The position numbers and the translations under genes were made by a program. DNA of 64,000 bases from Chrysoperla carnea (Eukaryota; Arthropoda; Insecta; Neuroptera; Chrysopidae), in the NCBI RefSeq assembly GCF_905475395.1, contig NC_058340.1:65450181-65514180 (forward strand), written 5' to 3'. Shown one piece after another: positions 43,095-62,026 of this stretch (the stretch's first letter is position 1; each line of letters opens with the position of its first letter). Below the pieces are notes generated by a model. It saw only the letters and a list, made by a program, of their open reading frames with translations, made no database searches and was not told the DNA's origin.

Positions 43095-43910
43095 ATGTCC
43101 CGCGATCCCTATGGTAGTTCCAGTATTGGTGGTGGTGGAAATCGATCTCCACGTAGTGTTCGTCGAATCGCTGAACTTCCAACTGTAGATCGTTCACCGT
43201 CACGCAGTTATCCTGCAACAACAGGAGGACGCGGTAGTCCATTAGGTAGAAAATCAGCTGTTAGACAAACTCGTTCAGGAAATAATTCTCCAGATCATAC
43301 AGGTTACGGTTCATCATATCATCATCAAACAATGGGGAGTCCATATTACAGTCGTGAGGATGACCTTGCCAGTCCGGTGCTGTTAGACGAGCGTGGCCGA
43401 TCAACAGGGCCAGGAAGTCATCATAGATCACGTAGTGCGACACGACCCACGGGCGTAGGTCCAATGAATGTACGATATCAATCGTTGGACCGGGCAACCG
43501 GAATCTTGAGCGATTCGGCTCATGAACGTGAATTCATGCCAATCAGAGAGCCACGTGAACGATCGCTGGATCGGGGTGGTCGTGATCGTAGTTTGGAGCG
43601 TGGTTTATATTTGGAGGAAGAATTATATGGGGGATCAGCAAGATCAGCACGTCAATCACCAAATCCACATTTATCATCACGCGAACCATTCATTGGAGAA
43701 TTACAACATCAAAATAATGATTTACAACGCGAGCTTGGTAATTTGAAAAAAGAATTAGAATTAACAAATCAAAAATTAGGCTCCAGTATGCACAGCATTA
43801 AAACATTTTGGAGTCCAGAATTGAAAAAAGAACGTGCGTTGCGTAAAGAAGAATCCGCTAAATACAGTTTAATTAACGATCAACTGAAATTGTTAAATAA
43901 TGAAAATCAG
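43095..43910 (+). CDS. brp: bruchpilot exon with start codon and N-terminal region
   Basis: 272 codons, phase 0, ending Glu-Asn-Gln with donor GTAATT. Includes the low-complexity N-terminus and the first coiled-coil heptads. Confidence 0.92.
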
Positions 43911-46900
43911 GTAATTACTCATTTCATTTTATTCGTAGTAATAGTATTTATAGTAGTGGGGGAAAGAGTAGGGGGAATTTTACTGATTAGTTTGTTCATC
44001 TGTCAACAACCATAGGCAGATGTCTCTCAGATCTCACGATAGATGAACAATCATTATATTAGGTTAATGCACGACCTTTGGCACTATTTTTAAAAGGGCA
44101 ACAAACATTACTTTTATGAAAACTTTAATTAATGTTAATGCTGATATCTTAAGATATTTATAATATTCAATAAACATTTTTGTAGAATCGATATTAAATC
44201 GGTTAATGTCCGCCATATTGATGGTATCTGAATATCTAAATTCACTGATATTTCTCGGTCCAGTAAAAAAAGGTAATGAGTATAATAAAATGAAATAATT
44301 TTACCCATTCCCTATTTTTAGGTAATAAGGTAAAAATTATAGTTTTTTTTTTTTTTTTGACAACTATTACTTTAACAATATAATTAGATAAGAGATAAGA
44401 TCTTTATATTTCATTTCGAAATTTGATATTAAAATCAGATAAGCAAATGACACTTTAATTTCCTTTTGTTTCGGTAATAGATTTTAGCATTTCCGTATAT
44501 AATAGTTTAAAATTTATAGCCTAATATTTACCAAATAGTTAGGCGAATATTTATTGCAAGATTTTCCTTGAAAGTTTTTTAGTAAAATTATTGCGAAAAT
44601 GTAACTACATTTTTCAATATTCAATTAAATTCAAAATTGAAATTATTTTCGAATTCACCTAAATCTTCTTTAAAGTGAAATTTGTTGCAGTCAACTTTTC
44701 TAAAATGCCCTTTATGAATATTTAGGTTTTCAAAATTTTCGGTTTAAATTCCATTTCCTTATAGAGACAAAATATATCGAATTACGCATAAGGTATATAC
44801 AAAATAAAATTTATTTTGAAAATTTATTTATTAAGAAAATGATCTTGGAAATTTTTCGAAAGAGAATTAAAGTCGAGGTGCCAATCTATTGATTTTTTAG
44901 AAAAGTAGAGAAAATGAAATAAATATTTAGGGTAGTTGGGAATTTTACAGACTTTTATTTAACTTGCAATGTTCGTAAATGTAGATTTTTCATCAACGTC
45001 TTTCTTTTCGGCTGTGATAAGTTTTGCCACCGATGACAATATAAAACTATAAAGTTATTTTTTTGATGAAAAAGAATTATGGTGGAAGCGATTTGAAGAG
45101 TATATATAAAATATAATATGAATATGGTAGAGGCCATAAAAAGCTAATTCATTTAAGTCTTAAATTAATGGGCCGTTAGTTTACAATCAAGGAAGAATTT
45201 CATGATTTGTTTTACCATTATTTTTGAAGGATTGATAAAGAAAAGTTTGGTAATAAAGAAAATTGATAATTTTCGCTTTGCAACCTTTTCGATAGTTACA
45301 AATTTCCTATCATTTTTATTAATTTAGATTTACGAAAATAGAAAACTCGATTTTTATTAATTTAGTCATATTACATACCTTCTTTTCTCAATTTTTCAAA
45401 AAGCAGATGAGCTTAACAAAAAGTGTATTCATTTTTTTTATACACTGAGTCCATATAAAGATGACTCAAAAGCCATAAAAATTTAGTCTCTACTTTAAGA
45501 GTTGAACAAAAATTTCATGACAAAAATAATTTTTCAAAAAAGAAGCTTTAATCGTCATGAGCTTTAAATTAGAAAATTAATGTTTTACTTGAATCTCGCA
45601 CACTTTAAATAAAAGCTTGAGACGCTTATGACAACGAAGATCGTAATCCTCATAAAGGGATACCCTGTACATATGAATATATATCAAGGTATACTACCCA
45701 AGTTTGTAACGCTTAAAGAAGTGTCCACAAAAGCACCTACTTAGTCCATTTTCAATTGTCCGCCTGTCAGTCTGCCTGAACACTATAACCCAAAAACGAA
45801 AAGAGATATCAAGTCGAAATTTTTATAGCGTGCTCAGGACGTAAAAAGTGAATTGGGGTTCATAAATAAGACCCGCCTTGTAAATCACTAAAATTTACCT
45901 TTGAAATTTTCGAAAAACAAATAAATAAGGCCCGAAAGGCCGTCATAATTGTGTTGGCTTTTTAAACTCTTCTAATTTATAAAAAATAATGCAAGCACTG
46001 ACATTCTACACTTTTTATACAGGGTATTACAATAATAAACTCAGTAAATTGTTTTTTTTCAGTTGGTTTACTTAAAAAATATATTTTTCACCACAACACT
46101 CATCTGGAGGGAGTTCGTTCTTTTATAATAATTATCTTTTATTTTTTTCTAAAAATTTATTATGACAGAATAATCATAGACTAAATTAATTATTCAATTC
46201 ATTAAAAAAGATTGCATACAGTGCTGGTTTGACTCGGAGATGCTTCTTCGGTTTTTTGTAAAAAGGAAATATTGTTATTTTTAATAAGTAGGACACAGGA
46301 AGCCATAGAGTATATCTTCTACTATACACTATAACGGTCTATTATAATGAACGGTTGTCTTTGTCATTCCCATTGACAGGATATAATAAAAATAATAATG
46401 AGATCCTGTAATTATCCCATGTGATTTGAGTCTATATTCATATATAGAGTAGTGAGTACACACATCACAGTCAAATGGATGTAAAATTTCCCTATTTTTG
46501 CTAATTTTTTTTTTTTAGGTCAGTATGTTATCTACTATGCATTTTGTACTGTTTTATATGTGCAGCAACTAGTTCATTGATCCGAAGTTCTGCTCCGTAT
46601 CTCTTTTAATCTGATGAGATTCACAGCTCCTACATATACACTGTCTGTATAGACTATACAGGGTGTCCCGTGATTCGATGATCATAGCTTAAGAGTGTAT
46701 TCTCTGAAAAATTTTAAGTCGGAAATGCCTTTTGAACTTTTGTCCAAAACTCATTAGTTCAGGAGTTATGGGAACTATTAAATTTAACCACTAAAATAAA
46801 GAACAAAAAGCTTAGCTGATGTATACAAAATTGCATACAAAAGCTTACCTGATGTAATTCTGTACATTTTTGATTTTTATTCAAGTTTCTAGGATCGAAA

Positions 46901-49900
46901 ATGGCTGGTTTTATTTTTAAATTTAAACTTTTGTTCTATTTCTAACGGTATTCAAGATGGGTCCTACGGACACAAGACCCAATTAACCTATGTTGCTCAT
47001 TTACGAACTTAGCCTCACTTTTTACGTCCTGAGTGCGCTACAAAAGTTTCAGGTTGATATCTCATTTCGTTTTTGAGTTATCGTTATCATAGACAGACGG
47101 ACAATCGGAAATGGACTAATGAGGTGAATTTATGAACACGTATACCGTTATATTTAATAATAAGATAAAATAAAACTCTGGAAATATCCCATTTTTTGTC
47201 CACCCTTTTCCCACCTATGTAATTTGTATTAAAAAGTTTACCCAAAAAGACAACATTTTTTTATTCTATTAAATAATTAATGTATTAAAAAAGGAAAATT
47301 GTCCTTTATTGAATTTATAGGGTCAATATCTTGTTTACACTTTATTCATAATAAATGTATATCTACAATTCTACATACCTATATGGGCAATGTACCTGTA
47401 AGGTACAGATCATACAAGGTCCACTTAAGTCGTTTCGATACCAAAACGAAAGTGTTACCAAAACTATGAAATTTTGTGTGTCAATTAATGAGTATTTAAT
47501 ACGTCTTCTGTATTTTCAAGTCGATTCTCTGTACGATTTACGAAACATTAATTATTGAAAACAGTCCTTTTTTCATGGTAGTATATATACATACTTTTCA
47601 TATTTGTGGAATCCTGATCTCGGAATTAAGCACATAAGTGATAACTAGCGAAAAACTGGCATCACAGCTTAAAAGAATGAAAAGAATGGGTTTCAAAAAA
47701 GATTTTAATAAGATCTGATCAAATTTGCCTGTGTTATAAAAAAAACGAATTTTTTAGCTTTATGACGTCATCAAAATCCAAAAAATTAAATTTTGCTCTA
47801 TCACATCCAAATTTTATCCAATTTTGATAAACCAAGTATGCAATCCTACTAAATTTGGTTCATATTTTTCAAATTTGTAATAAAAATTAACCTAGCTCTC
47901 TTAGGTTTCAAGAATATGGTGTCCTGGTCCCGGAATTAAGCAAATAATTTATAGGTAGCGCAAAACTGACATCACAGCTGAAATGAATGACCCAAAATTA
48001 GTGGGTTTCAAAAAAAATTCCAATATGATGGGACCAAATTTGCTTGTGATATCAAAAAAATCGATTTTTTTAACTCGATGACGTCTTCAGAATCCAAAAA
48101 ATTTAATGTTGCTCTATCACATTCAAATTTTATCCAATTTTGATAAACCAAGTATGTAATCTTACTTAATTTGGGCCATTCTTTTCAAATTTGTGATCAA
48201 AATTAACCTAGCTCTAATTTGTTTCAAGAAAGTCTTGGTCCCGGAATTAAGCACAGAAGCGATAGCTAGCGAAAAATTGAAATCACAGCTGAAAAGAATG
48301 GCCCAAAATTAGTGGGTTTCAAAAAAAATTCCAATAAGATCGGATCAAATTTGCTTCTGCTATCAAAAAATCGATTTTTTTAACTTAATGAGGTCATCAG
48401 AATCCAAAAAATTTAATTTTGCTCGATCACATCCAAATTTTATCCAATTTTGATAAACCAAGTATGCAATCCTACTAAATTTGGGCCATTCTTTTCAAAT
48501 TTGAAATAACTATTTTCTACTTTGAAGTACAATAAAAGCTTGTCCTTTAAAAAGTATTTTTTATTTAAATTTTTTTAGAAACACACCGGTTTAATAAAAT
48601 TTTTGATAACATAAACTTTTTTTTTTAAAAAGGAAGCTGTAAGAGATTATGACTTTCATCATAAAAATAGATCCCTTGATAAAACCTTTTGAAGTAGGTA
48701 GTTATAATCTTTAAAAACCTACGCATACATTTTAATAAAAATTAAATATATATTCCTTTTCCTACGCGATAGCGATAGATATTCAAGTTAAAAATTAAAT
48801 ATTTATTAGTTGATTTCATATAGAATAATTACACACCCAATTAGCGTTTTAGGGTTGAATAAATATATATTTGTGGATATATTTTATACAAATGTAGGTA
48901 TTATATAATTCATAATTAAATCGAATAACCATACATACATAAATTTAATTATGCAACTACCTATGACTCTGACTATATAGGTACAAAAAGTTTGTATAAT
49001 ATATAAAATAAAATCAATAAAAAATATATTAAAAATTCATTAAGAATAAATAATTTATTATTATTTGTAACAATAATAATAATTATTATTATAATAATAT
49101 TATTGTTAAAGTGAAGTACTATAGTCTAAGAGCTAGTGAAAAAATAACAGTTTTAAACAAGGCCTACTTATATTTTGGCCAATAACTCTCTTGTTCATGA
49201 AATGACAAGAAATGAGCGTCCACATTTTTATAAGTGGATAAATCTTACGTTATCACGGAATCACACTAGCAGGGCGAAAAATTTCGAATGAATTTTACGT
49301 AATGACTAATGTTTAGGACTGCTTAATTTCGGATTTTCTATTCCTTGTTGAATTAAAGTAGGGATGAAACAAGACATTCTGTCGGAATTACATTCTTTAA
49401 TTATAAAACTACATCATACTACCTAGACCCGTGCTAAATTCCGCATTGGCGTGGCTAAAAACAGGCTAAAAAAATAATCTATTAGTGATAAATATCAACA
49501 CTAATTTACTTTCTTTTTATTTATAGGCAATTTTATTGCAAATATGATATACGAATTGCATACTGAACAAAATTAAATCTTAATATAATTTCTCTAGCCT
49601 ATTTTTTTTTTTAATGGTTTGTTTTTAGACCATGAGCCTATTTTTCGTCATTAGTCAGCACGATAAGCTTTAAAAAGAAGATAAAACAGAAAAATTTATA
49701 GAGGAATAAGCAAGATCTCTCGATGTGACAAAAAAAACAAGCTATAGAAATAATATATAAGATTAAAATTACAGTCACACTATAATTATTTGAAAACGTG
49801 GTTTTTAAATTGTTAGAATATTGTTAAAATCAGAATCTGGAATATTATTAAAATTAGAAATTTTCCGGGGATTTTTCCAGAATGCGCATTCGTAAATGCA

Positions 49901-52900
49901 GTAAACGGAATCTTCCCAGGTGCCAGGCGTACTTCATACCTAAAAGTTCAATAAGAAAAGAATTATCTAAAATCCAACCATCCAACCGTCTTATCCAAAA
50001 TCCAACCGTCTTGATAGTGTGAGACTTTAGGATATACTCTATTATTATAAAGAAAAATAACAGTCAAAAACGCCTAAAACGGTTCCAAGTCCGCACATTA
50101 AAGCAAAGCACGGTCACTATAACGTTAAACTCGTTCGAAATTTTACGTTTTTCTAATATGTATGTGACTGACTTTATTCATTTGACTGACTCGATAAATA
50201 CCAAAGATTAGAAAATGAATCCCTAATTTATATTCGGCGAGTATTAGAGTGTAATTGACCAAAATATATTTAAGTTTGGTTAAAAAAAAAAACACTGTAA
50301 TAAGTTTACCAAATCACTGGCTCTCAGACCAATCGAATCACACAGAATTTATGTCAAATATTATAAAAATACGTATATTGATTTTTATTTTATTATTTCT
50401 CGTTTATGTAATAGAAGCTTTTTTGTTTTTAACTTTTATATATAAAAATAAATACAAGAGATAGTTTTTCAGGAAATTTATTTTCAAATATTAATGCTTT
50501 TACACAGAAGTGATTCATAAACTTTGATAAAATATAAAAGTGATTCATAAAATATTCCCCAATGACCTATCATTTTTATGTATTTAGCTAGGAATTCAAA
50601 ATGAGTTTGAATATAGATGTATATACAAACAAACAATATCATTTTCGTTTGATTGGTAGAGAGTTGTATAGGAAGTACGGGCGGGCGAAAAGTGTTTCGA
50701 TTACTGATCGTTTCTGATTATCGAGACTCTGATAAACAATCCTAAAAAAATTGGCCATATGTCCTCCTTGGATTTGAATTTATCATTGATTCAATTGACA
50801 AAGAATGTGTTTGTGATAAAATTTTGTTAAATTTTAAGAATTTTTTATCCAAAAGCAGCTTTTTAGACTAAAAATTCCTGTTTCGCCTTCTTTCTCTCTT
50901 GGACCAAAAGATGGATATGATGCCCATAGAGTCTATATATGAGTTTAATCCTAAGGGTAATATAGGTAGAGAAGAACTTATAAATTAATAGGCTGAACGC
51001 CTTAGAATATTTAAAAGATACATATTTCGAAAGTGAAGCCAAGTCCAACACAAGGGCTAGTTCTGGTTTAAGCTACATTTAAAACTAACAGGCTTTAATG
51101 TTTAAATATTCTGAATAAACAAAAGTTATTTGATTTTTCAAAATAAAAGCTTTTTTTATTTTATTTTTCCTATTTCTTTTTAAAAGATAGATTATAGCAG
51201 AGCCTATAGACCAATTTTAAGAATTCTTGAACTTATATCTTTAAAATTTTGAGTACGTATTCTTGGGTATTAGTTGAAATGAACTACCTTCATTTGGTGA
51301 AAAAAATTGATTTGTTTTTATTAATATTCCAACCGTTATTAGACGTTATAGTCTAAACTTATAATATCCTGTATAAAATAATCAATTCTAAAAAATTTAT
51401 TTATTTTATAAGAATTAGCGAGAGGACGGTTTAAACATTAGCTCAGAACATATCATTAAACAGCATAGAAAGTGAATTTCTACTTAATGGCCTACGAACT
51501 AGTGTTGTGAATGATTAGAAAAAGAGATTATATGTTCTATGTTTATACCCTCGTCAACTGCCATTAAAGAACTCTCTATATTCTCTTAGAATTGCGAATA
51601 ATTACAAAATTATTTTTGTATTTACCAATGACATTCAAAGATATATAATAAATGTATATAAAAAATGGTGGAAACGCAAGGAAGAAGTATAATCAATGTT
51701 AGACATATATCAATAATACAATTCATTGCGCTTCCACCATTAAATACAATATTTTATAAAAACAATAATAATGTTACACGACATATCGTGTAAATGAAAC
51801 CATTACAGAACGAAGGATAATCAATAATAAGGTTACGATATATAATATAGCGAAAATATCACTAAAAGTGTGTTGTTATTCTGAGCTCATGAATTTGATT
51901 TTTCAAGCCATAAAATATAAAAATTTGAGAATTTAACTATACCATTATACGCGAGAACAACATTTTAAGTCTAGATCAAAAAGATGAGTACTTAAAAGCG
52001 GCCCACTGGAAAATTATAAAAAGGTCGATCCGATGAGCAAAAAAAGAAAAATGGAACGACTTTATTGTGTAGCTTTTTTATTGGTAAAGTATGAAAGTGT
52101 GCTTTTTATGGTGATTAAATATTATATACATGATAGACTACAGTCTTTAATTATAGGGATTTTTCGTTTACACAACGTTGGGCCTCAGTTTCGAGGTAGA
52201 AAAACGGCTTACGCTTGAAATATATAGTGAATCGCTGGCAGATATTTTCCATTGCTACCCGTTTTCCATTTCTGAAGCCACTGGCCCGTCGGGAATTTTC
52301 CCGTATGACCAGTCCGCCTCTGCTTAAAAACTTTTGCTTGAAAGTTTGAAAGTCTACAAGTTTCAAGAATCTGATAAAAAGCAAGTTTCAATCGAACATT
52401 GCAAGTTAAATAATCTAGACATTGTTATTGGAACAATCATTTTTCCATGAGACAATAGTTTAAAATAGAAATACGATAACAGGCTTAATCTGGGTTTCTG
52501 CAGTTATTGGATAAAGATAGGTATATATTAAGAAACCATAGTAATTTGTCGCAATACTGTTCAAATTTATGAATGAATTATCTAATTAAAATACCCTTAT
52601 CTTTCAATAGCAGTCACTGCTATTTACAATTTAAATTATGACTGTCATATTGACAGCTTGACATCATAAGTCATTTTCCCTCGGAAGAATTTACAGTTAG
52701 TCAGGGACAAGGTTAAAAAATTCGGCTTGGCAAGATTGGTGTCAAGTTTGATCTTAGTTAGATGAGTGACAACGAGTGAAAGAAAGTGTTAAAATTATTC
52801 TTTTCATTTGTTTCAGAAACAAGCAATGCTAGTGCGTCAACTAGAAGAAGAATTACGTATGAGAATGCGTGCACCAAGTATTGAAATGCAACAACAAATG

Positions 52901-55900
52901 GAAGTATTATTTAGCGAAAATGAACATTTAACAAGAGAAATTGCCATATTGCGTGATACGATTAAAGTGAGTATTATATATGTGTTCATATTTTATTTTT
53001 TATATTTTTATGTATTACATTAGGTTTGTGTAAACAGGGTTGGATTGTCCCGTGGGACGATAACTCTTCAAGGTTTTATAATAATTTTAAAGTTATTTGA
53101 TAATTTGATGATAAATGGTGTTAAAAATCTGGAAAATACTTATAAATTAAAATTATCCTCTTTTAAGTATTTATGAAATAAAATTTCATCCAGGAATTGG
53201 GAATATTTAATAAAAGAAAGCCATCAGTCCAGGAAGTCTCAGAATGATCGTTTTTGTAACTTATCGAGTTATTAACATCTCAACGATCAAATATTCATTA
53301 AGGAATTTTTGTAGTTTCTAAAAAAATTGATCCCGCATTGACTTTGTTAGCTTAAAGAATTCGAAAATTCTATTCCATTTTATTGCCTGAGAAATTTTAC
53401 GAAAACGGAGCTCTAATCTTGCACTTGAAACGTATCTAAGAACACTTCCCGTTAAATTACCTTTCAAACGAAACAAAAAAATCCAAATCGATTCATCCGT
53501 TTAGGCGCTACGATACCATAGACAGACACACAGACACACATAGCTGTCAAACTTTCAACATCCCTTTTTTTGATTCGGAGGTTAAAAATAGTTAAAATTA
53601 ATAGTAATTAGGATCATTTTCATGCGGGTTTCTCCCAAATATTCTGTTAATTATATCAGCTTTTGCAAAAATTTCATATATCTACTCTCGAAAGCAGAAA
53701 TTCATGAATAAAATCTATCACATAGAAATCTTAGTCTATGATGCAATTTCAATGATTAAATTGTTTTTTCTCAAATTAAAATCATTTTCCTAAAAACATT
53801 TGGCCTATATTTCGATCTTATTCAAATATTTTTCTGCACAATTTATGTAAATTGAAGTTTTGAGCCAAGCATAAAGCAATAAGAATCGTGTGGTTTTATT
53901 TTATATTTTTTATTATTTTTTTTTGAAATTAACCTCGAACTACCTCGAACAAATAATCTTTTATATGTCACCGGGTTAGTGTAAAAGTCGTTAGTTTATA
54001 ATAAATCTAGAAAGATTGTAAATAAACAACAATTTCCCATAGAACTACAAAATTTTTTATGAATTATATATTTATTTGTCTAAAGCCTTGACAAAGTTTA
54101 AAAATAAATATTTATTTAACTAAAGTCTGAAAATAAAATGTGATAATAACTTGATTATTTGACGTAATAAAAAATGAAACATATGTATGTTTGCATTTAT
54201 TTATTGACACTAAATAAAACGATATGAAATTCACTTGAAGAAATGACCTTTTTTACCCCGACTATACAATGGCGAATATGGCAATATTCATCTGTTCGCA
54301 CCTACTTCCAAACTACTTATCATAATTTGACAAATGAGATATCGTCATATTACATTGAATATGGCGCTTTCTAGAGGACATAAAGTTATGATCGAAAAAC
54401 AAATTATAATTTAACGATACCGTGTTGAAAGGGCGTAATTAGTACTTTTCGAATATATTTTGTAATACTTTAATACAAAACTATAACAGCAAAATAGTCT
54501 AAATAAAATGAAAGTTCAAAAACTAAAACCCCGACTCTCTTACAAAATCTTGCTTTTAAAAGTATGAAAACAAGAAAATATTTTCATCTGGAATTGCTAT
54601 GATCAGTAAAATCGTCAATACACTCGGGGAACCTCTTTTACGTACTGTAGAAAACTGTTTAATCTTAGAGATCCCCCGACTGTAATGACGATTTTATTGA
54701 TCATAATAATTTCAGCTGAACATGAGTCGGGGCTTTAGTTTTCGAACTTTATTTTATTTATTTTGTAATTTGAGTAAGTAATTTGATTTGTTTACTATGT
54801 GGTACTAGAAATGACACAATAATATGTCAATACATTTATTTATTTTTTAAATTTTATTTTCATAAATTTAGCATATTCCGTAGTCAATCTCTCAAACTAT
54901 TTATTTTGATTTGATTCACTTTAGACTCAAAGCACTTAAGCACTTGTGTAATAAACTATAATAATATACACTAAGCAGTGATTGAACGATAGCGTGCATA
55001 TTAGTTTATAAACTAACGACTGAAAATCGTTAAATTATAAACTAGTAGTTAGCTATTGTTAGTTTATAACCCTACGAAAAAAAAAAAAAAAACCGTTAGA
55101 TTGCAAATCTTATTATTCGTGCATAATCTCGGTTCACAATCATACTAGATCGATTATAAAGGGGTCTATCGATGGTTTACAATTATACTAGATCTATTAT
55201 AAACTAACGATTCTTACTACAATCGACGTATTCACACAGTTTCACCACAATTTTATCAAACACGAATGAATAAATAAAGATAGAGATATATTTGTATAAT
55301 GTATATAACGGAGGAAATACTTAGAATATGAGAAATAGAGTGTTAGAAGAGTTGTGAATTTAAATATGTGAATTATTCAAAAGACGCACAATCTTATTTC
55401 GAAACTATGTGATGATAACTTACATAGTCATATGGGGTGGTCCTTTGACAAAGCAAAATAATACGCATAACTTTATAGGAAACACATCTAAAATGTTTTG
55501 GTAAAATCAAAACTGTACACCTAAAAACTGAATAAAGTATGCATCAATTGCAGTAAAAAAAATTCGTTTTCTTTACTTATTTAGAATAAGTATGTATTAT
55601 TTTTGTTTGTTTACTAAACTCTTGTATACAAATTTATTAATCATCAAAGTCTCTCGATTATAATTGACGTTTTAATTATGATATAAAAGGCGTAAACAAT
55701 TCTCTTTAATTCAAATAAGTACTCTCTTCTTGCACTGTTTTTTGTGTGACTAATCCCGAACTGTACAAAAAAAAATATTGTGTGAAACTCGTGCGGATTT
55801 TCTCTTTAAAAGTACAGATCAGTTAGCCGGAGCCTCAATACAGTAGAGCCTCAAAAATCGGAACACTCAACACTTTTCGCACTTCCGCACTTTCCACACT

Positions 55901-58900
55901 AATCTCTACCAATCACTCAAAAATAATATTGTTTGTTTGTATAAAGATCTAATATGATTCATTGTTATTATTCTAAAAACACAATAGCATTACAATTACA
56001 CTCGTTAATTCTGTGTGTACAGTCTCGCTAAAATACATACAATTCCTTTAAAAGGATATTTCTAATGAATTTCTCCCTACCTTCCCAGTGATCGGAACAT
56101 TCCTGATTTTATTGAGTTCGATTTATCGAGGCTCTACTGTAATTTCAAGAGAAAAATGTGAAATTCCAGTTATCGAGATTCTACTGTAGTATAGTGTTAT
56201 GGGATACAAAACATGAACGATAAGAATATAAAAATGTCTTCCATATATTGGGAAGTTTGAAAAGTTTCATGTATAATAGTTTATTGTTTGCAAACTGTGC
56301 CCGCGGCTTCAATGGTGTGGTTTACAGAATCATTATTTAAGTTTTATTTTAAATAAAGTTGAATTTTTTTATGTAAGTTGTAAGAAGATAAGCAATCAGC
56401 GTCACTCGTATCAATATTGTTAGAATGTCTTCTTGTTAGAATGTCTTCTAAAACATTTATGTCCTACTCCGATAATTTTCATTATTTTTACTTCGAAATA
56501 CAACGATAAAATTTTTTCATTTCTTTACCCTCTAGGCGAAAGTACAGTGCAACAATTTCAAAAATTATTAAGAACGACTATAAAAAGACCCATCTTTCGG
56601 ACAAGAAACATGACTAAGTAATTATTCGCTCTCCCACTGGAATGTTTGAGATAGACAGAAAAAAGTTGAATTTTCATTAAATTTATAATACCCTGCGTAT
56701 CTTTTTCGCTGGAGCAATCTATATAGATACATACGTACATACATTCTTACAGACGAACATAGAAGAATTGTATGCGTTATTGACTTTTTTATAGTCAAAG
56801 TGGCGACTGTCAAAAGACTGACGCCATATCATCTTGAGATGTTCTATTATAGTATAGTATACTGAGAATAGACTTTTTACACATAGTCTGTACACACAGA
56901 AAAATATTGTCAAGGTTAGACTAGCCGCATTGTCTAGATTGTTTGGTAATTTCCATTATTGTGAATTACCAATAAAATGAGCGTGGTAGTATCAATATCA
57001 TACATTTCGTAAGCGTAGGCGGAATGAAAAAAAGGGAATATTATTATTCTTATCTAAGAGAGAAGTGGTTGACATCTGTTTTTTGTTTTCCATTTCTATT
57101 TTATTTATATTTTTTCATTTATTTGTGATATGGCCGAATAGTTCCTAGGCAAAAGCCTAAAGCCTTGCTATATACATTCGTTTTTCCCTTGCGGACATTG
57201 TTAAACATTATATTCGTGAAACTTGCTTAGATGTAAATAATTTATAGTTTAAAGAACTAAAAAACTCGCTTTATTGCAATAAAAAGTGGTGAATAGTTTT
57301 AATTGTACCTAATGTAAAATTCAAGGCGTGGGGTGCTCACTACATTCATTCTTTAAATTAGCTAATTGATGACAGATATCGACCATTCCACGCTTTGAAT
57401 TGTGTCGCATTTATGATGAAGACACCTTCATCTTTTCGTTATTTATAGGAATATCGATTTGAAATTCTGCACAAGCATACAGGGTGATCGATTTCCTTCT
57501 ATAAATTGGCAAATAAGCTCATTCTTAATATTTAACTTAGAACTATGATCATATTTCAAGGTACCGAATATCAAATGGAAAAATGATTTTTCCAATAATG
57601 AAAGCTACTTATCTTTAACAGTAAAAATATCAATATTTTGTATTGTAGCGTATGAACTAAGTGTCTATGTACGTGTAAGTAGATATATTGTACATACAAT
57701 ACTATATACCTTTACTCATTCATAGACAATAGATTAAGTGCCTCTTATTGATTGTTATTACAATTCGTACTACCGTGAAAGGTCAAAAGCTCATATTGAC
57801 TTTCCTCTTTCTAAATATATAAAGGTTTATATTAAATTACAGTACAGGAAATGTATTTAAGAGCGTATATAGTAAACTTTTCTTTTCTTGATTAAACGAA
57901 CAATTTATTGAACTTTTTCAATATTTTATGAAATTAATTTTTTATGTAATTTGGACTGTGATTGATCATGATGGAAACATTTGAAGCAAAAGTCAAACTT
58001 TGTACAAATGGCAAGAAATATAAATATCTAATTATTCTATTATACAAAGGCAATAGGATCAATATCTTTCTGTATCATGCTATCTTCTGCCACATGTCAA
58101 AATGATGCAGTTTCAGAATCGAGTTTGAACTTTTTTTGAGTGTACCGTAATTTTTTCATGCCAGTATGAAAATATCATTTTCCAAAACCCAATCAAACAA
58201 AAATTTTATTGACAGAACTACTTATATTGAAATGTGAATGAAATATTGCTTTAATATAAGTGGAGAAAATGTTTAATAACTTCAAAACTGTTCATTATTT
58301 TTCTTTTCGATGCTTAGAACAAAAACAAGTCGAAAATTCAGTTAATTTAGCTGGAAGAAAGCTATAAATTATGAATTAGTGTGTATCCTCCTATAGCCTT
58401 AAAGTTTTACAAGTGTACTATCCGATTTTTCCAATATATTCATTTTATAAAACATACTAAAATTTTGTATTTCTTTTTTACAGGAATTAGAACTTCGTAT
58501 TGAAACGCAAAAACAAACATTACAAGCCCGCGATGAAAGTATCAAAAAATTATTGGAAATGTTGCAAAATAAGGGAATGGGTAAGTAATTTTTTTAACTC
58601 TATTTTCCTGCTCTAAGATTTTATTAGTAGGTGTTGAATATTTGTTATCAAAGTTCAAAAATAAAATTAATTTCTTATAATGGAAGAGCCAAGCCAATAA
58701 AAATTCTCTGAATTTTCTAAAGCATTTGAGGATTGATTATAGTAGTTGTGCACACACACATACTGCGGTCAATCAAGCAAACGATAGAACAGGGGTCAGA
58801 TATATGCTATCAAAATTGTTATGATTGCCGTAATTCAATCCCCAAAATCCGCATAGATTTAGGCCCCGTAGATTTAGACACTTAATATCCTATCAAGAAA

Positions 58901-61395: not shown

Positions 61396-62026
61396 CTAGC
61401 TGTTAAACCCGCTTCGCTGGGTTGTTTTTGCACATTTAAATATCAAAATTGTTAAATGAAAGATTTTTTTTTAATTCTCTCTGTGTGTACGGAACAGTAA
61501 GATTTTTTTGCCCGATCCCAATATTATGTCTACACTCTCTGTGTGTACGGAAAAGTAAGGGAAAGATCGATAGAAACCCATGGAACATTCCAGATTGTTC
61601 GAGAAAGTTTGATAAAATTCAATAAAAATCCATACAACATTCGAGAATATTCGAGAAAGTTCTAGAAAATTCGATAGAAATCCATAGAACATTCCAGAAT
61701 GTTCGAGAAAATTCTAGAAAATTCGATAGAAATCCATGGAACATTCCAGAATTTTCGAGAAAAATCGAAAGACATTTGCGCCAGTAGCGCCATCTAGTGA
61801 AAATTGTACTATTGACAGTGGGGCCTATTGTACTATTAGAACTATTTTTTTAATCTATTTTCTATGAATTTCTAGATCATTTTTAATTCCACCCCCACCA
61901 AACTCCCTTATTCACAATGGGAGCCTAAGGGCTACCCAATGACATAATCCCCTACCGAAGGTCAATGGTTAGTTTTAGGGAAAATCGGGGACATACAAAC
62001 AAACACTCTCTTTTTATATATATAGA
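61396..62026 (-). mobile_element. Non-autonomous Helitron-like element
   Basis: On the minus strand it begins TCTATATATATAAAAAG, directly after an A, and ends CTAG directly before a T. A hairpin AACCC-AGCGAAGC-GGGTT sits six bases before CTAG. TC start, 3' hairpin, CTAG end and insertion between A and T are the accepted Helitron signature. 631 bp, no Rep/helicase. It carries a tandem array of heat-shock-element-like sequence (61571-61770). Confidence 0.7.
61571..61770. promoter_or_regulatory. Tandem heat-shock-element array inside the Helitron
   Basis: Four units with an exact 52-bp period (starts 61571, 61623, 61675, 61727). The third unit contains, from 61686 to 61725, eight consecutive pentamers that alternate nGAAn and nTTCn without a break. 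The second unit has seven, the fourth five, the first about six with interruptions. Three such pentamers already form a heat shock factor trimer site in known genes. Function here is inferred. Confidence 0.55.

What the first reader, a model, noticed from the sequence alone, without database searches (positions are those of the whole stretch)
61571..61770. Four tandem 52-bp units built from perfect heat-shock-factor pentamers
The sequence shows up to eight contiguous alternating nGAAn/nTTCn pentamers (61686-61725) and more than twenty in all. Chance runs of this length are very unlikely, even in AT-rich DNA. HSF binds three or more such units cooperatively, so this could be a very strong heat-inducible enhancer within a bruchpilot intron. 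Other copies of the element could spread the site around the genome. HSF sites in Helitrons have precedent in Caenorhabditis.
Basis: partly seen in the sequence, partly recalled or inferred. Interest (0 to 1): 0.78.

Follow-up and report, generated by a model that had tools for sequence, protein, structure and literature searches.

The report
Heat-shock-site array in insect Helitron
A small jumping element of about 300 copies in an insect genome carries dense arrays of perfect binding sites for the heat-shock factor, and a full-size element in the same genome has such a site beside its promoter, so heat shock may drive these elements and spread its own switches.

Summary
Window 61567-61762 holds 3.8 units of 52 bp with runs of 7, 8 and 5 perfect alternating nGAAn/nTTCn pentamers; 200 simulated windows gave no run above 4. 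The array lies in a 631-bp non-autonomous Helitron (minus strand, 61396-62026), in an inferred bruchpilot/ERC intron. The 559-Mb genome has about 294 copies. A 7-pentamer pattern matches 1,828 times, reversed control 0; the places listed belong to this family. An autonomous RepHel Helitron (12 of 12 copies read) has a perfect 4-pentamer heat-shock element 18 nt before a TATATAAG box, upstream of its transposase frame. Host hsp70 promoters have a similar layout but no run above 3.

Best reading: HSF binds these arrays and heat drives or drove the Helitrons; the brp position is probably incidental. Binding and expression were not testable. Inserted copies do not protect the register, and constraint on source elements is undecided (p 0.01 to 0.30 by counting rule). 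Such Helitrons are known in Caenorhabditis, whose study found no enrichment in other animals examined. This is a new member of that kind, in an insect.

The parts
61396..62026 (-). Non-autonomous Helitron, 631 bp, inserted A^TC...CTAG^T; about 294 copies in the genome
   Evidence: Ends read directly. 23 of 23 full-length copies extracted have the A/T flanks, with 23 different flank pairs (the T beyond the TC end was required by the extraction rule, the base beyond CTAG was free). Copy number from the 3' end pattern with up to 3 mismatches, 147+147, control 0.
61567..61762 (.). 52-bp tandem array built of heat-shock-element pentamers (unit types E-D-A-C of the family)
61639..61673 (.). Run of 7 contiguous perfect pentamers
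61686..61725 (.). Run of 8 contiguous perfect pentamers
61738..61762 (.). Run of 5 contiguous perfect pentamers
61787..61800 (-). CTCF-like motif TCACTAGATGGCGC, 1 mismatch to CCASYAGRKGGCRS; the only match with up to 1 mismatch in the window
   Evidence: shuffle mean 0.05; 5 of 100 shuffles had a match. The consensus is printed as the human ChIP-chip consensus in PMC6746451 (passage). Motif kept in 23 of 23 full-length copies extracted.
61406..61423 (-). 3' hairpin AACCCAGCGAAGCGGGTT, 6 nt before the terminal CTAG
   Evidence: -4.4 kcal/mol, z -0.61, so not exceptional by energy. It has the most G-C pairs of the stems scored before 360 CTRRT sites in the window.
61477..61501 (.). 25-bp direct repeat, copy 1 (96% identical to copy 2)
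61535..61559 (.). 25-bp direct repeat, copy 2
43095..43913 (+). First exon found of the host gene, ERC/bruchpilot (Cast domain)
   Evidence: PF10174 E 2.4e-23; tblastn
52814..53008 (+). Second exon found of the ERC/bruchpilot gene
58454..58585 (+). Third exon found of the ERC/bruchpilot gene; the Helitron lies about 2.8 kb further on, antisense to the gene

Best explanation
A heat-shock-element-loaded Helitron family. Shown: the feature is one of about 294 copies of a non-autonomous Helitron whose 52-bp units are composite heat-shock elements (19-36 pentamers in runs of 3 or more in each of 23 full-length copies). An autonomous RepHel Helitron with an intact frame, in the same genome, has a perfect 4-pentamer element next to a TATA box. 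Inferred: (1) heat-activated HSF trimers bind the arrays cooperatively; (2) in the autonomous element HSF drives the transposase after heat; (3) the short element carries the same kind of site, amplified by tandem duplication, because it raised transcription or accessibility and hence mobilisation of the source copies; (4) after insertion each copy decays neutrally, but while young it can lend heat-responsiveness to nearby genes. The brp intron copy, with a decayed first unit, is probably an incidental landing.
For: Runs of 7, 8 and 5 against none above 4 in 200 simulations. Genome-wide 7-pentamer pattern 914+914, reversed control 0+0; 5-pentamer pattern 2239+2245, control 3+0, with 99 of the 100 places listed in this family. 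In the 8-run the spacers are scrambled (39% identity) while 24 of 24 core letters stand; all 20 control runs of 8 or more from prokaryote and viral contigs have spacer identity of 0.56 or more, 10 of them 1.0. Given a decamer repeat already in this register, neutral decay gives the contrast with joint probability at most 4.5e-4 over the eight divergences tried. Autonomous Helitron L099: Rep and PIF1 domains, HSE at 1053-1072, TATATAAG at 1091, ATG at 1531; same HSE in 11 of 11 further copies of that subfamily; five diverged promoters keep 3 pentamers despite a 12-bp insertion. In three divergent hsp70 pairs of the host, each of the six hsp70-facing TATATAAG boxes has a pentamer pair within 100 nt upstream. 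An HSF DNA-binding exon is present.
Against: No binding or expression data. Inserted copies do not protect the core letters: private changes core 37 in 24 sites, spacer 17 in 16, other 11 in 12. Core sites of the array diverge about twice as fast as the element body (1.8% against 0.9%). Between the four units of the window copy there is no core/spacer difference (Fisher p=1.0; 14 of 52 rotations as good). Unit types D and E have lost core letters and still multiplied, and the terminal type C has lost four. The source-level contrast depends on the counting: core 4 to other 10 between types, p=0.077; with the terminal columns of type C, 8 to 11, p=0.30; with the 13 recurrent changes added, p=0.011, or 0.052 with both. 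The link between the short and the autonomous element is weak: the 15-of-16 match of the 5' ends has E 0.81 and is no better than A+T-rich matches inside the element; otherwise CAGCTAG and the motif. The 12 autonomous promoters are near-identical, so their agreement shows recent spread, not selection. Four RepHel loci outside that subfamily have no run of 3 or more in the stretch examined (0 of 4). One of 12 shorter control runs is as scrambled as the window's.
Confidence: 0.66

Rival explanations
1. A neutral minisatellite inside a Helitron. The 52-mer grew from a decamer that happens to read TTCnnGAAnn; HSF plays no part in the element's life, and the arrays are at most weak decoys.
For: Tandem repeats inside Helitron-like elements are ordinary (passages of PMC4067079 and PMC4344730). 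0.7% of window decamers would read as perfect heat-shock elements if repeated. Runs of 8 or more exist in prokaryotes, which have no HSF: 17 stretches. Inserted copies drift without core protection, and the four units of the window copy show no core constraint. Types C, D and E spread with core letters lost.
Against: Scrambled spacers with intact cores, unlike all 20 control runs of 8 or more (one of 12 shorter control runs, with 6 pentamers, was as scrambled). Perfect HSE at the TATA box of the autonomous Helitron. The commonest units, A and B (100 of 177), differ at 4 non-core and 0 core positions.
Confidence: 0.2
2. The array is a set of repeated sites for another factor or for the element's own replication (host DNA-binding protein, RepHel, or chromatin), with HSF resemblance as a by-product; the adjacent CTCF-like motif hints at a chromatin role.
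For: CTCF-like motif kept in 23 of 23 full-length copies extracted. A related GGCGCCATCT motif occurs twice just upstream of the HSE in the autonomous element.
Against: The pentamer register matches the HSF consensus, and pentamer pairs of the same kind stand before the TATA boxes of the host's divergent hsp70 genes. CTCF binding in this species is untested, and the consensus used is human.
Confidence: 0.1
3. A specific intronic heat-shock enhancer of bruchpilot kept by selection at this locus.
For: Position about 2.8 kb after the third exon found.
Against: The element is one of about 294 dispersed copies, lies antisense, and lacks the B-type first unit that most copies read have; its first unit is the decayed type E (unit order E-D-A-C). 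No orthologous locus was available.
Confidence: 0.04

Closest known systems
Caenorhabditis Helitrons with HSF-1 sites (HelitronY1_CE, HelitronY4_CE and others; Garrigues et al. 2019, PMC6927752; abstract, the sections on HSE content, features and other species, the discussion, and passages seen)
   Same: Helitrons hold most dense heat-shock-element clusters of the genome, tandem elements overlap one another, autonomous copies are included, and the authors propose a selfish heat-driven origin.
   Different: Insect host; a defined 52-bp composite unit of up to 8 contiguous pentamers; a CTCF-like motif beside it; HSE plus TATA box in front of RepHel. Their survey of UCSC metazoan genomes found enrichment only in Caenorhabditis. 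No sequence comparison with Caenorhabditis elements was made here.
Lepidopteran Hel-2 and Lep1 non-autonomous Helitrons (PMC4344730, passages; PMC4038834, search listing only)
   Same: Short non-autonomous insect Helitrons; for Hel-2, TC and CTAG ends, A/T flanks, 3' hairpin and internal tandem repeats.
   Different: Hel-2 carries a (CTGT)n microsatellite; the term heat shock does not occur in the main text of PMC4344730.
DINE-1/Helentron elements with central tandem repeats (PMC4067079, passages)
   Same: Non-autonomous rolling-circle elements with internal repeats.
   Different: They have subterminal inverted repeats and prefer TT targets; here the ends are those of canonical Helitrons.
ONSEN of Arabidopsis (named in passages of PMC9032817; mechanism recalled) and human satellite III (passages of PMC9032817; HSF1 binding recalled)
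   Same: Mobile or repeated DNA activated by heat-shock factors.
   Different: A retrotransposon and a pericentromeric satellite, not Helitrons.

Membership tests
Canonical Helitron (non-autonomous) | 5' TC and 3' CTRR ends, inserted between A and T | tested here: met
   23 of 23 full-length copies extracted, 23 distinct flank pairs (the T beyond the TC end was imposed by the extraction pattern; one of 24 loci, L055, lacked an end)
Canonical Helitron (non-autonomous) | Hairpin a few bases before the 3' end | tested here: met
   Stem with 5 G-C pairs, top of 360 CTRRT sites by my scoring; folding energy not exceptional, z -0.61
Canonical Helitron (non-autonomous) | Dispersed multi-copy family with unrelated flanks | tested here: met
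   147+147 3' ends; different flanks at each of 23 full-length copies
Canonical Helitron (non-autonomous) | An autonomous partner with Rep and Pif1-like helicase that shares its ends | tested here: inconclusive
   64 Helitron_like_N matches, Rep plus PIF1 in L099; shared ends are only 15 of 16 bases (E 0.81) plus CAGCTAG
HSE-loaded Helitron (Caenorhabditis type) | Dense heat-shock-element clusters inside Helitrons, strongly enriched over the genome | tested here: met
   914+914 seven-pentamer matches, control 0; 0 runs of 4 or more in 69,015 bp of flanks of 23 copies
HSE-loaded Helitron (Caenorhabditis type) | HSF occupancy and heat induction of nearby genes | not testable with these tools
   No ChIP or RNA data held
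HSE-loaded Helitron (Caenorhabditis type) | Sequence homology with the Caenorhabditis elements | not tested
Helentron / DINE-1 | Subterminal inverted repeats near both ends | tested here: not met
   No perfect inverted repeat of 7-14 bases links the first 60 bases to the first 150 or last 130 bases; imperfect repeats were not sought there

The most novel reading that the evidence does not exclude
An insect lineage has evolved, independently of Caenorhabditis, a heat-driven Helitron system: an autonomous RepHel element under a promoter laid out like the host's hsp70, and a short non-autonomous family that turned that kind of site into arrays of up to dozens of pentamers paired with a CTCF-like motif, planting about 300 portable heat-responsive, possibly insulating, cassettes across the genome.
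Probability: 0.32. Interest if true: 0.8.

Novelty: new member of a known kind. Interest (0 to 1): 0.62.

Why it matters
The idea that Helitrons adopt the heat-shock response to drive their own spread rests, in the papers I found, on one nematode genus, and the published survey found no enrichment in the other animals it examined (PMC6927752). A second, distant case would make it a testable, repeatable strategy. With near-identical autonomous copies and about 294 arrays of known position, it can be asked directly whether heat mobilises a transposon and rewires nearby genes in an insect.

Tried and rejected
Chance point mutation: rejected by the run lengths. Simple decamer repeat: disfavoured by scrambled spacers. 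Selection on inserted copies: not seen. Constraint between the four units of the window copy: not seen. Recent capture from a host hsp70 promoter: the autonomous promoter showed no match to six hsp70 flanks beyond short pieces (best E 0.33); the short element's best match there was 29 bp, E 0.001, to L119, a flank without a run of 3 or more pentamers. Relatives in viral contigs: the three matches to the 3' end share only 17-19 bp and two other patterns found nothing. Frames read across the array (two, of 76 and 80 aa) found no protein relative. Rfam and tRNA scans of the window were empty. Literature searches for Helitron or transposable elements with heat-shock terms listed no insect Helitron with heat-shock elements by title or abstract; subscription papers are not held.

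Full report
Observation. In 200 simulated windows of the same dinucleotide make-up no run exceeded 4. Of 18 perfect three-pentamer sites in the window, 14 lie in the array; the rest of the element has no site with 8 or more of 9 core letters.

What it sits in. The array is part of a 631-bp element on the minus strand, 61396-62026, with the signs of a canonical Helitron: it begins TC after an A, ends CTAG before a T, and has a hairpin 6 nt before CTAG (folding energy not exceptional, z -0.61) with the most G-C pairs of the stems scored before 360 CTRRT sites in the window. The window has no second copy. Nothing recognisable is encoded by the frames tried or found by the RNA scans. It lies about 2.8 kb after the third exon found of an ERC/bruchpilot gene (exons 43095-43913, 52814-53008, 58454-58585), on the opposite strand. 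That it is an intron is inferred, since no later exon was found in the window.

The family. When the genome service answered, the window proved to lie in a 559-Mb genome with 56 matches to the element, some of them pieces of one copy (40 of 322 candidates scored). The 3' end pattern, allowing 3 mismatches, occurs 147+147 times, control 0. From the 24 loci L039-L062, 23 full-length copies were extracted (L055 lacked an end). In 23 of 23 the base beyond CTAG fits, and all 23 flank pairs differ (the T beyond the TC end was imposed by the extraction). Each of the 30 copies fetched has at least three runs of 4 or more pentamers. The 23 full-length copies hold 19 to 36 pentamers in runs of 3 or more, median 28; the stretches fetched for the expanded copies L063-L068 hold 42 to 63; and 69,015 bp of flanks of the 23 copies hold no run of 4 or more.

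Genome-wide load. The 7-pentamer pattern matches 914 times on each strand, and the same pattern read backwards never does. The 5-pentamer pattern matches 2239+2245 times, control 3+0. Listings show only the first 100 places, all on contig C1. For the 7-pentamer pattern they form 17 clusters, 15 with a 3' end of the family nearby and one more in the BLAST list; for the 5-pentamer pattern 99 of 100 places are this family by sequence. One side of the unit, in its main forms, accounts for 956 of the 1,828 seven-pentamer matches (475+481), about the half expected if nearly all come from this unit. For scale, the collection of prokaryote genomes (257 billion bases by its description) holds 17 stretches with 8 contiguous pentamers.

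Is the register kept? Three answers, not all in favour. First, in the window's 8-run the spacers share only 39% of letters while all 24 core letters stand. I compared 32 distinct control runs of 6 or more from 35 prokaryote or viral loci (four loci with duplicate arrays dropped). Every one of the 20 runs of 8 or more has spacer identity of at least 0.56, 10 of them 1.0; one of the 12 shorter runs (L009, 0.25) is as scrambled. Given a decamer repeat already in this register, a neutral decay model gives such a contrast with joint probability of at most 4.5e-4. Second, after insertion the letters are not protected: across 35 copies and 177 units, private changes number 37 in 24 core sites, 17 in 16 spacer sites and 11 in 12 other sites, and over the 23 aligned copies the core letters of the array diverge 1.8% against 0.9% for the element body, spacers 4.8%, other array sites 2.9%. 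Third, between the unit types that the family multiplied, changes number 4 in core and 10 elsewhere (MK-like p=0.077 against private changes). That tally leaves out columns 42-52 of the terminal type C, where four core letters are lost, and 13 changes seen in two or more copies (core 3, spacer 5, other 5). With the type C columns the tally is 8 to 11, p=0.30; with the recurrent changes instead 7 to 20, p=0.011; with both 11 to 21, p=0.052. The two commonest types, A and B (100 of 177 units), differ at four non-core and no core positions, but types D and E have lost core letters and still spread, and within the window copy alone there is no core/spacer difference. Constraint on source elements is therefore possible but undecided.

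The autonomous relative. The genome holds 64 matches to Helitron_like_N, of which 16 loci were read. L099 contains an intact 1,462-aa frame with Rep, PIF1 and Pif1_2B domains, a 5' end TCTATATATATAATAA (15 of 16 bases as in the short element, E 0.81, and A+T-rich matches inside the element are as good) and a 3' end with a stem and CAGCTAG before T. At 1053-1072 it has a perfect four-pentamer heat-shock element; TATATAAG begins at 1091 and the ATG at 1531. All 11 further copies of this subfamily in the list were read upstream and have the same run. The module matches 22 places; the five diverged ones read have different sequence just upstream and a 12-bp insertion that splits the run, but keep three contiguous pentamers. 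The four other RepHel loci read (L100, L112-L114) have no run of 3 or more over the stretches examined. Positive control: of six hsp70 5' flanks (L115-L120), four hold a run of 3 and none a longer one. In the three divergent pairs (L115-L117) each of the six gene-facing TATATAAG boxes has a pentamer pair within 100 nt upstream, most often the pair TTCTAGAA 23 nt before it; in L117 a run of 3 ends 44 nt before the box. L115 also has TATATAAG without a pair, and L118-L120 show no pair before a TATATAAG box. One exon of an HSF DNA-binding domain was found. So the autonomous Helitron has the layout of a heat-shock promoter, and the short elements carry denser arrays than the hsp70 flanks read.

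How it most likely works. HSF binds extended elements cooperatively (nematode HSF-1 DNA-binding domain, passages of PMC9148306). I infer that heat activates the autonomous promoter through HSF, and that the short family's arrays are amplified HSF platforms that helped its source copies to be transcribed or accessible when transposase was present. That the autonomous subfamily read here mobilises this short family is a guess: their ends are at most similar. Effects on neighbouring genes, brp included, are possible but unshown.

Compared with what is known. Helitrons hold most heat-shock elements of C. elegans, are bound by HSF-1 there and lie near genes raised by heat shock; the authors found no such enrichment in the non-Caenorhabditis UCSC animal genomes examined and suggested restriction to Caenorhabditis (PMC6927752; abstract and sections; passages). 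My four literature searches listed no insect case by title or abstract. This is therefore a new member of a known kind, in a distant host. Whether by convergence or transfer was not tested.

Noticed in passing
61787-61800 (minus); L099 921-955 and 993-1027: A CTCF-like motif (1 mismatch to the human consensus) is kept in 23 of 23 full-length short Helitrons extracted; the autonomous element has GGCGCCATCTGTTATCGAA twice just upstream of its heat-shock element.
   Followed up: partly
G000 C3:3767553-3809834: Seven Helitron_like_N matches, five of six gaps about 5,813 bp: a head-to-tail tandem array of another autonomous Helitron, as rolling-circle concatemers might leave.
   Followed up: no
L121-L125 against L099: A second promoter subfamily has a nearly identical HSE-TATA-5' UTR module but different sequence just upstream; its GGCGCCATCT motif pair lies some 330 and 740 bp upstream instead of next to the module, so DNA seems to have been inserted between.
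   Followed up: partly
L063-L068: Copies whose array has grown to 7-10 units, in orders such as BAAEDAC, suggesting block duplication of unit groups.
   Followed up: partly
47612-48509: A 310-bp tandem repeat, 2.9 copies, 85% matches, between the first two exons found of the same gene.
   Followed up: no
L004, L014, L020: Three viral contigs share a 7-pentamer TTC/GAA array; in L004 and L014 the same small frame follows it. An HSF-like pattern in presumed viruses, origin unknown.
   Followed up: no
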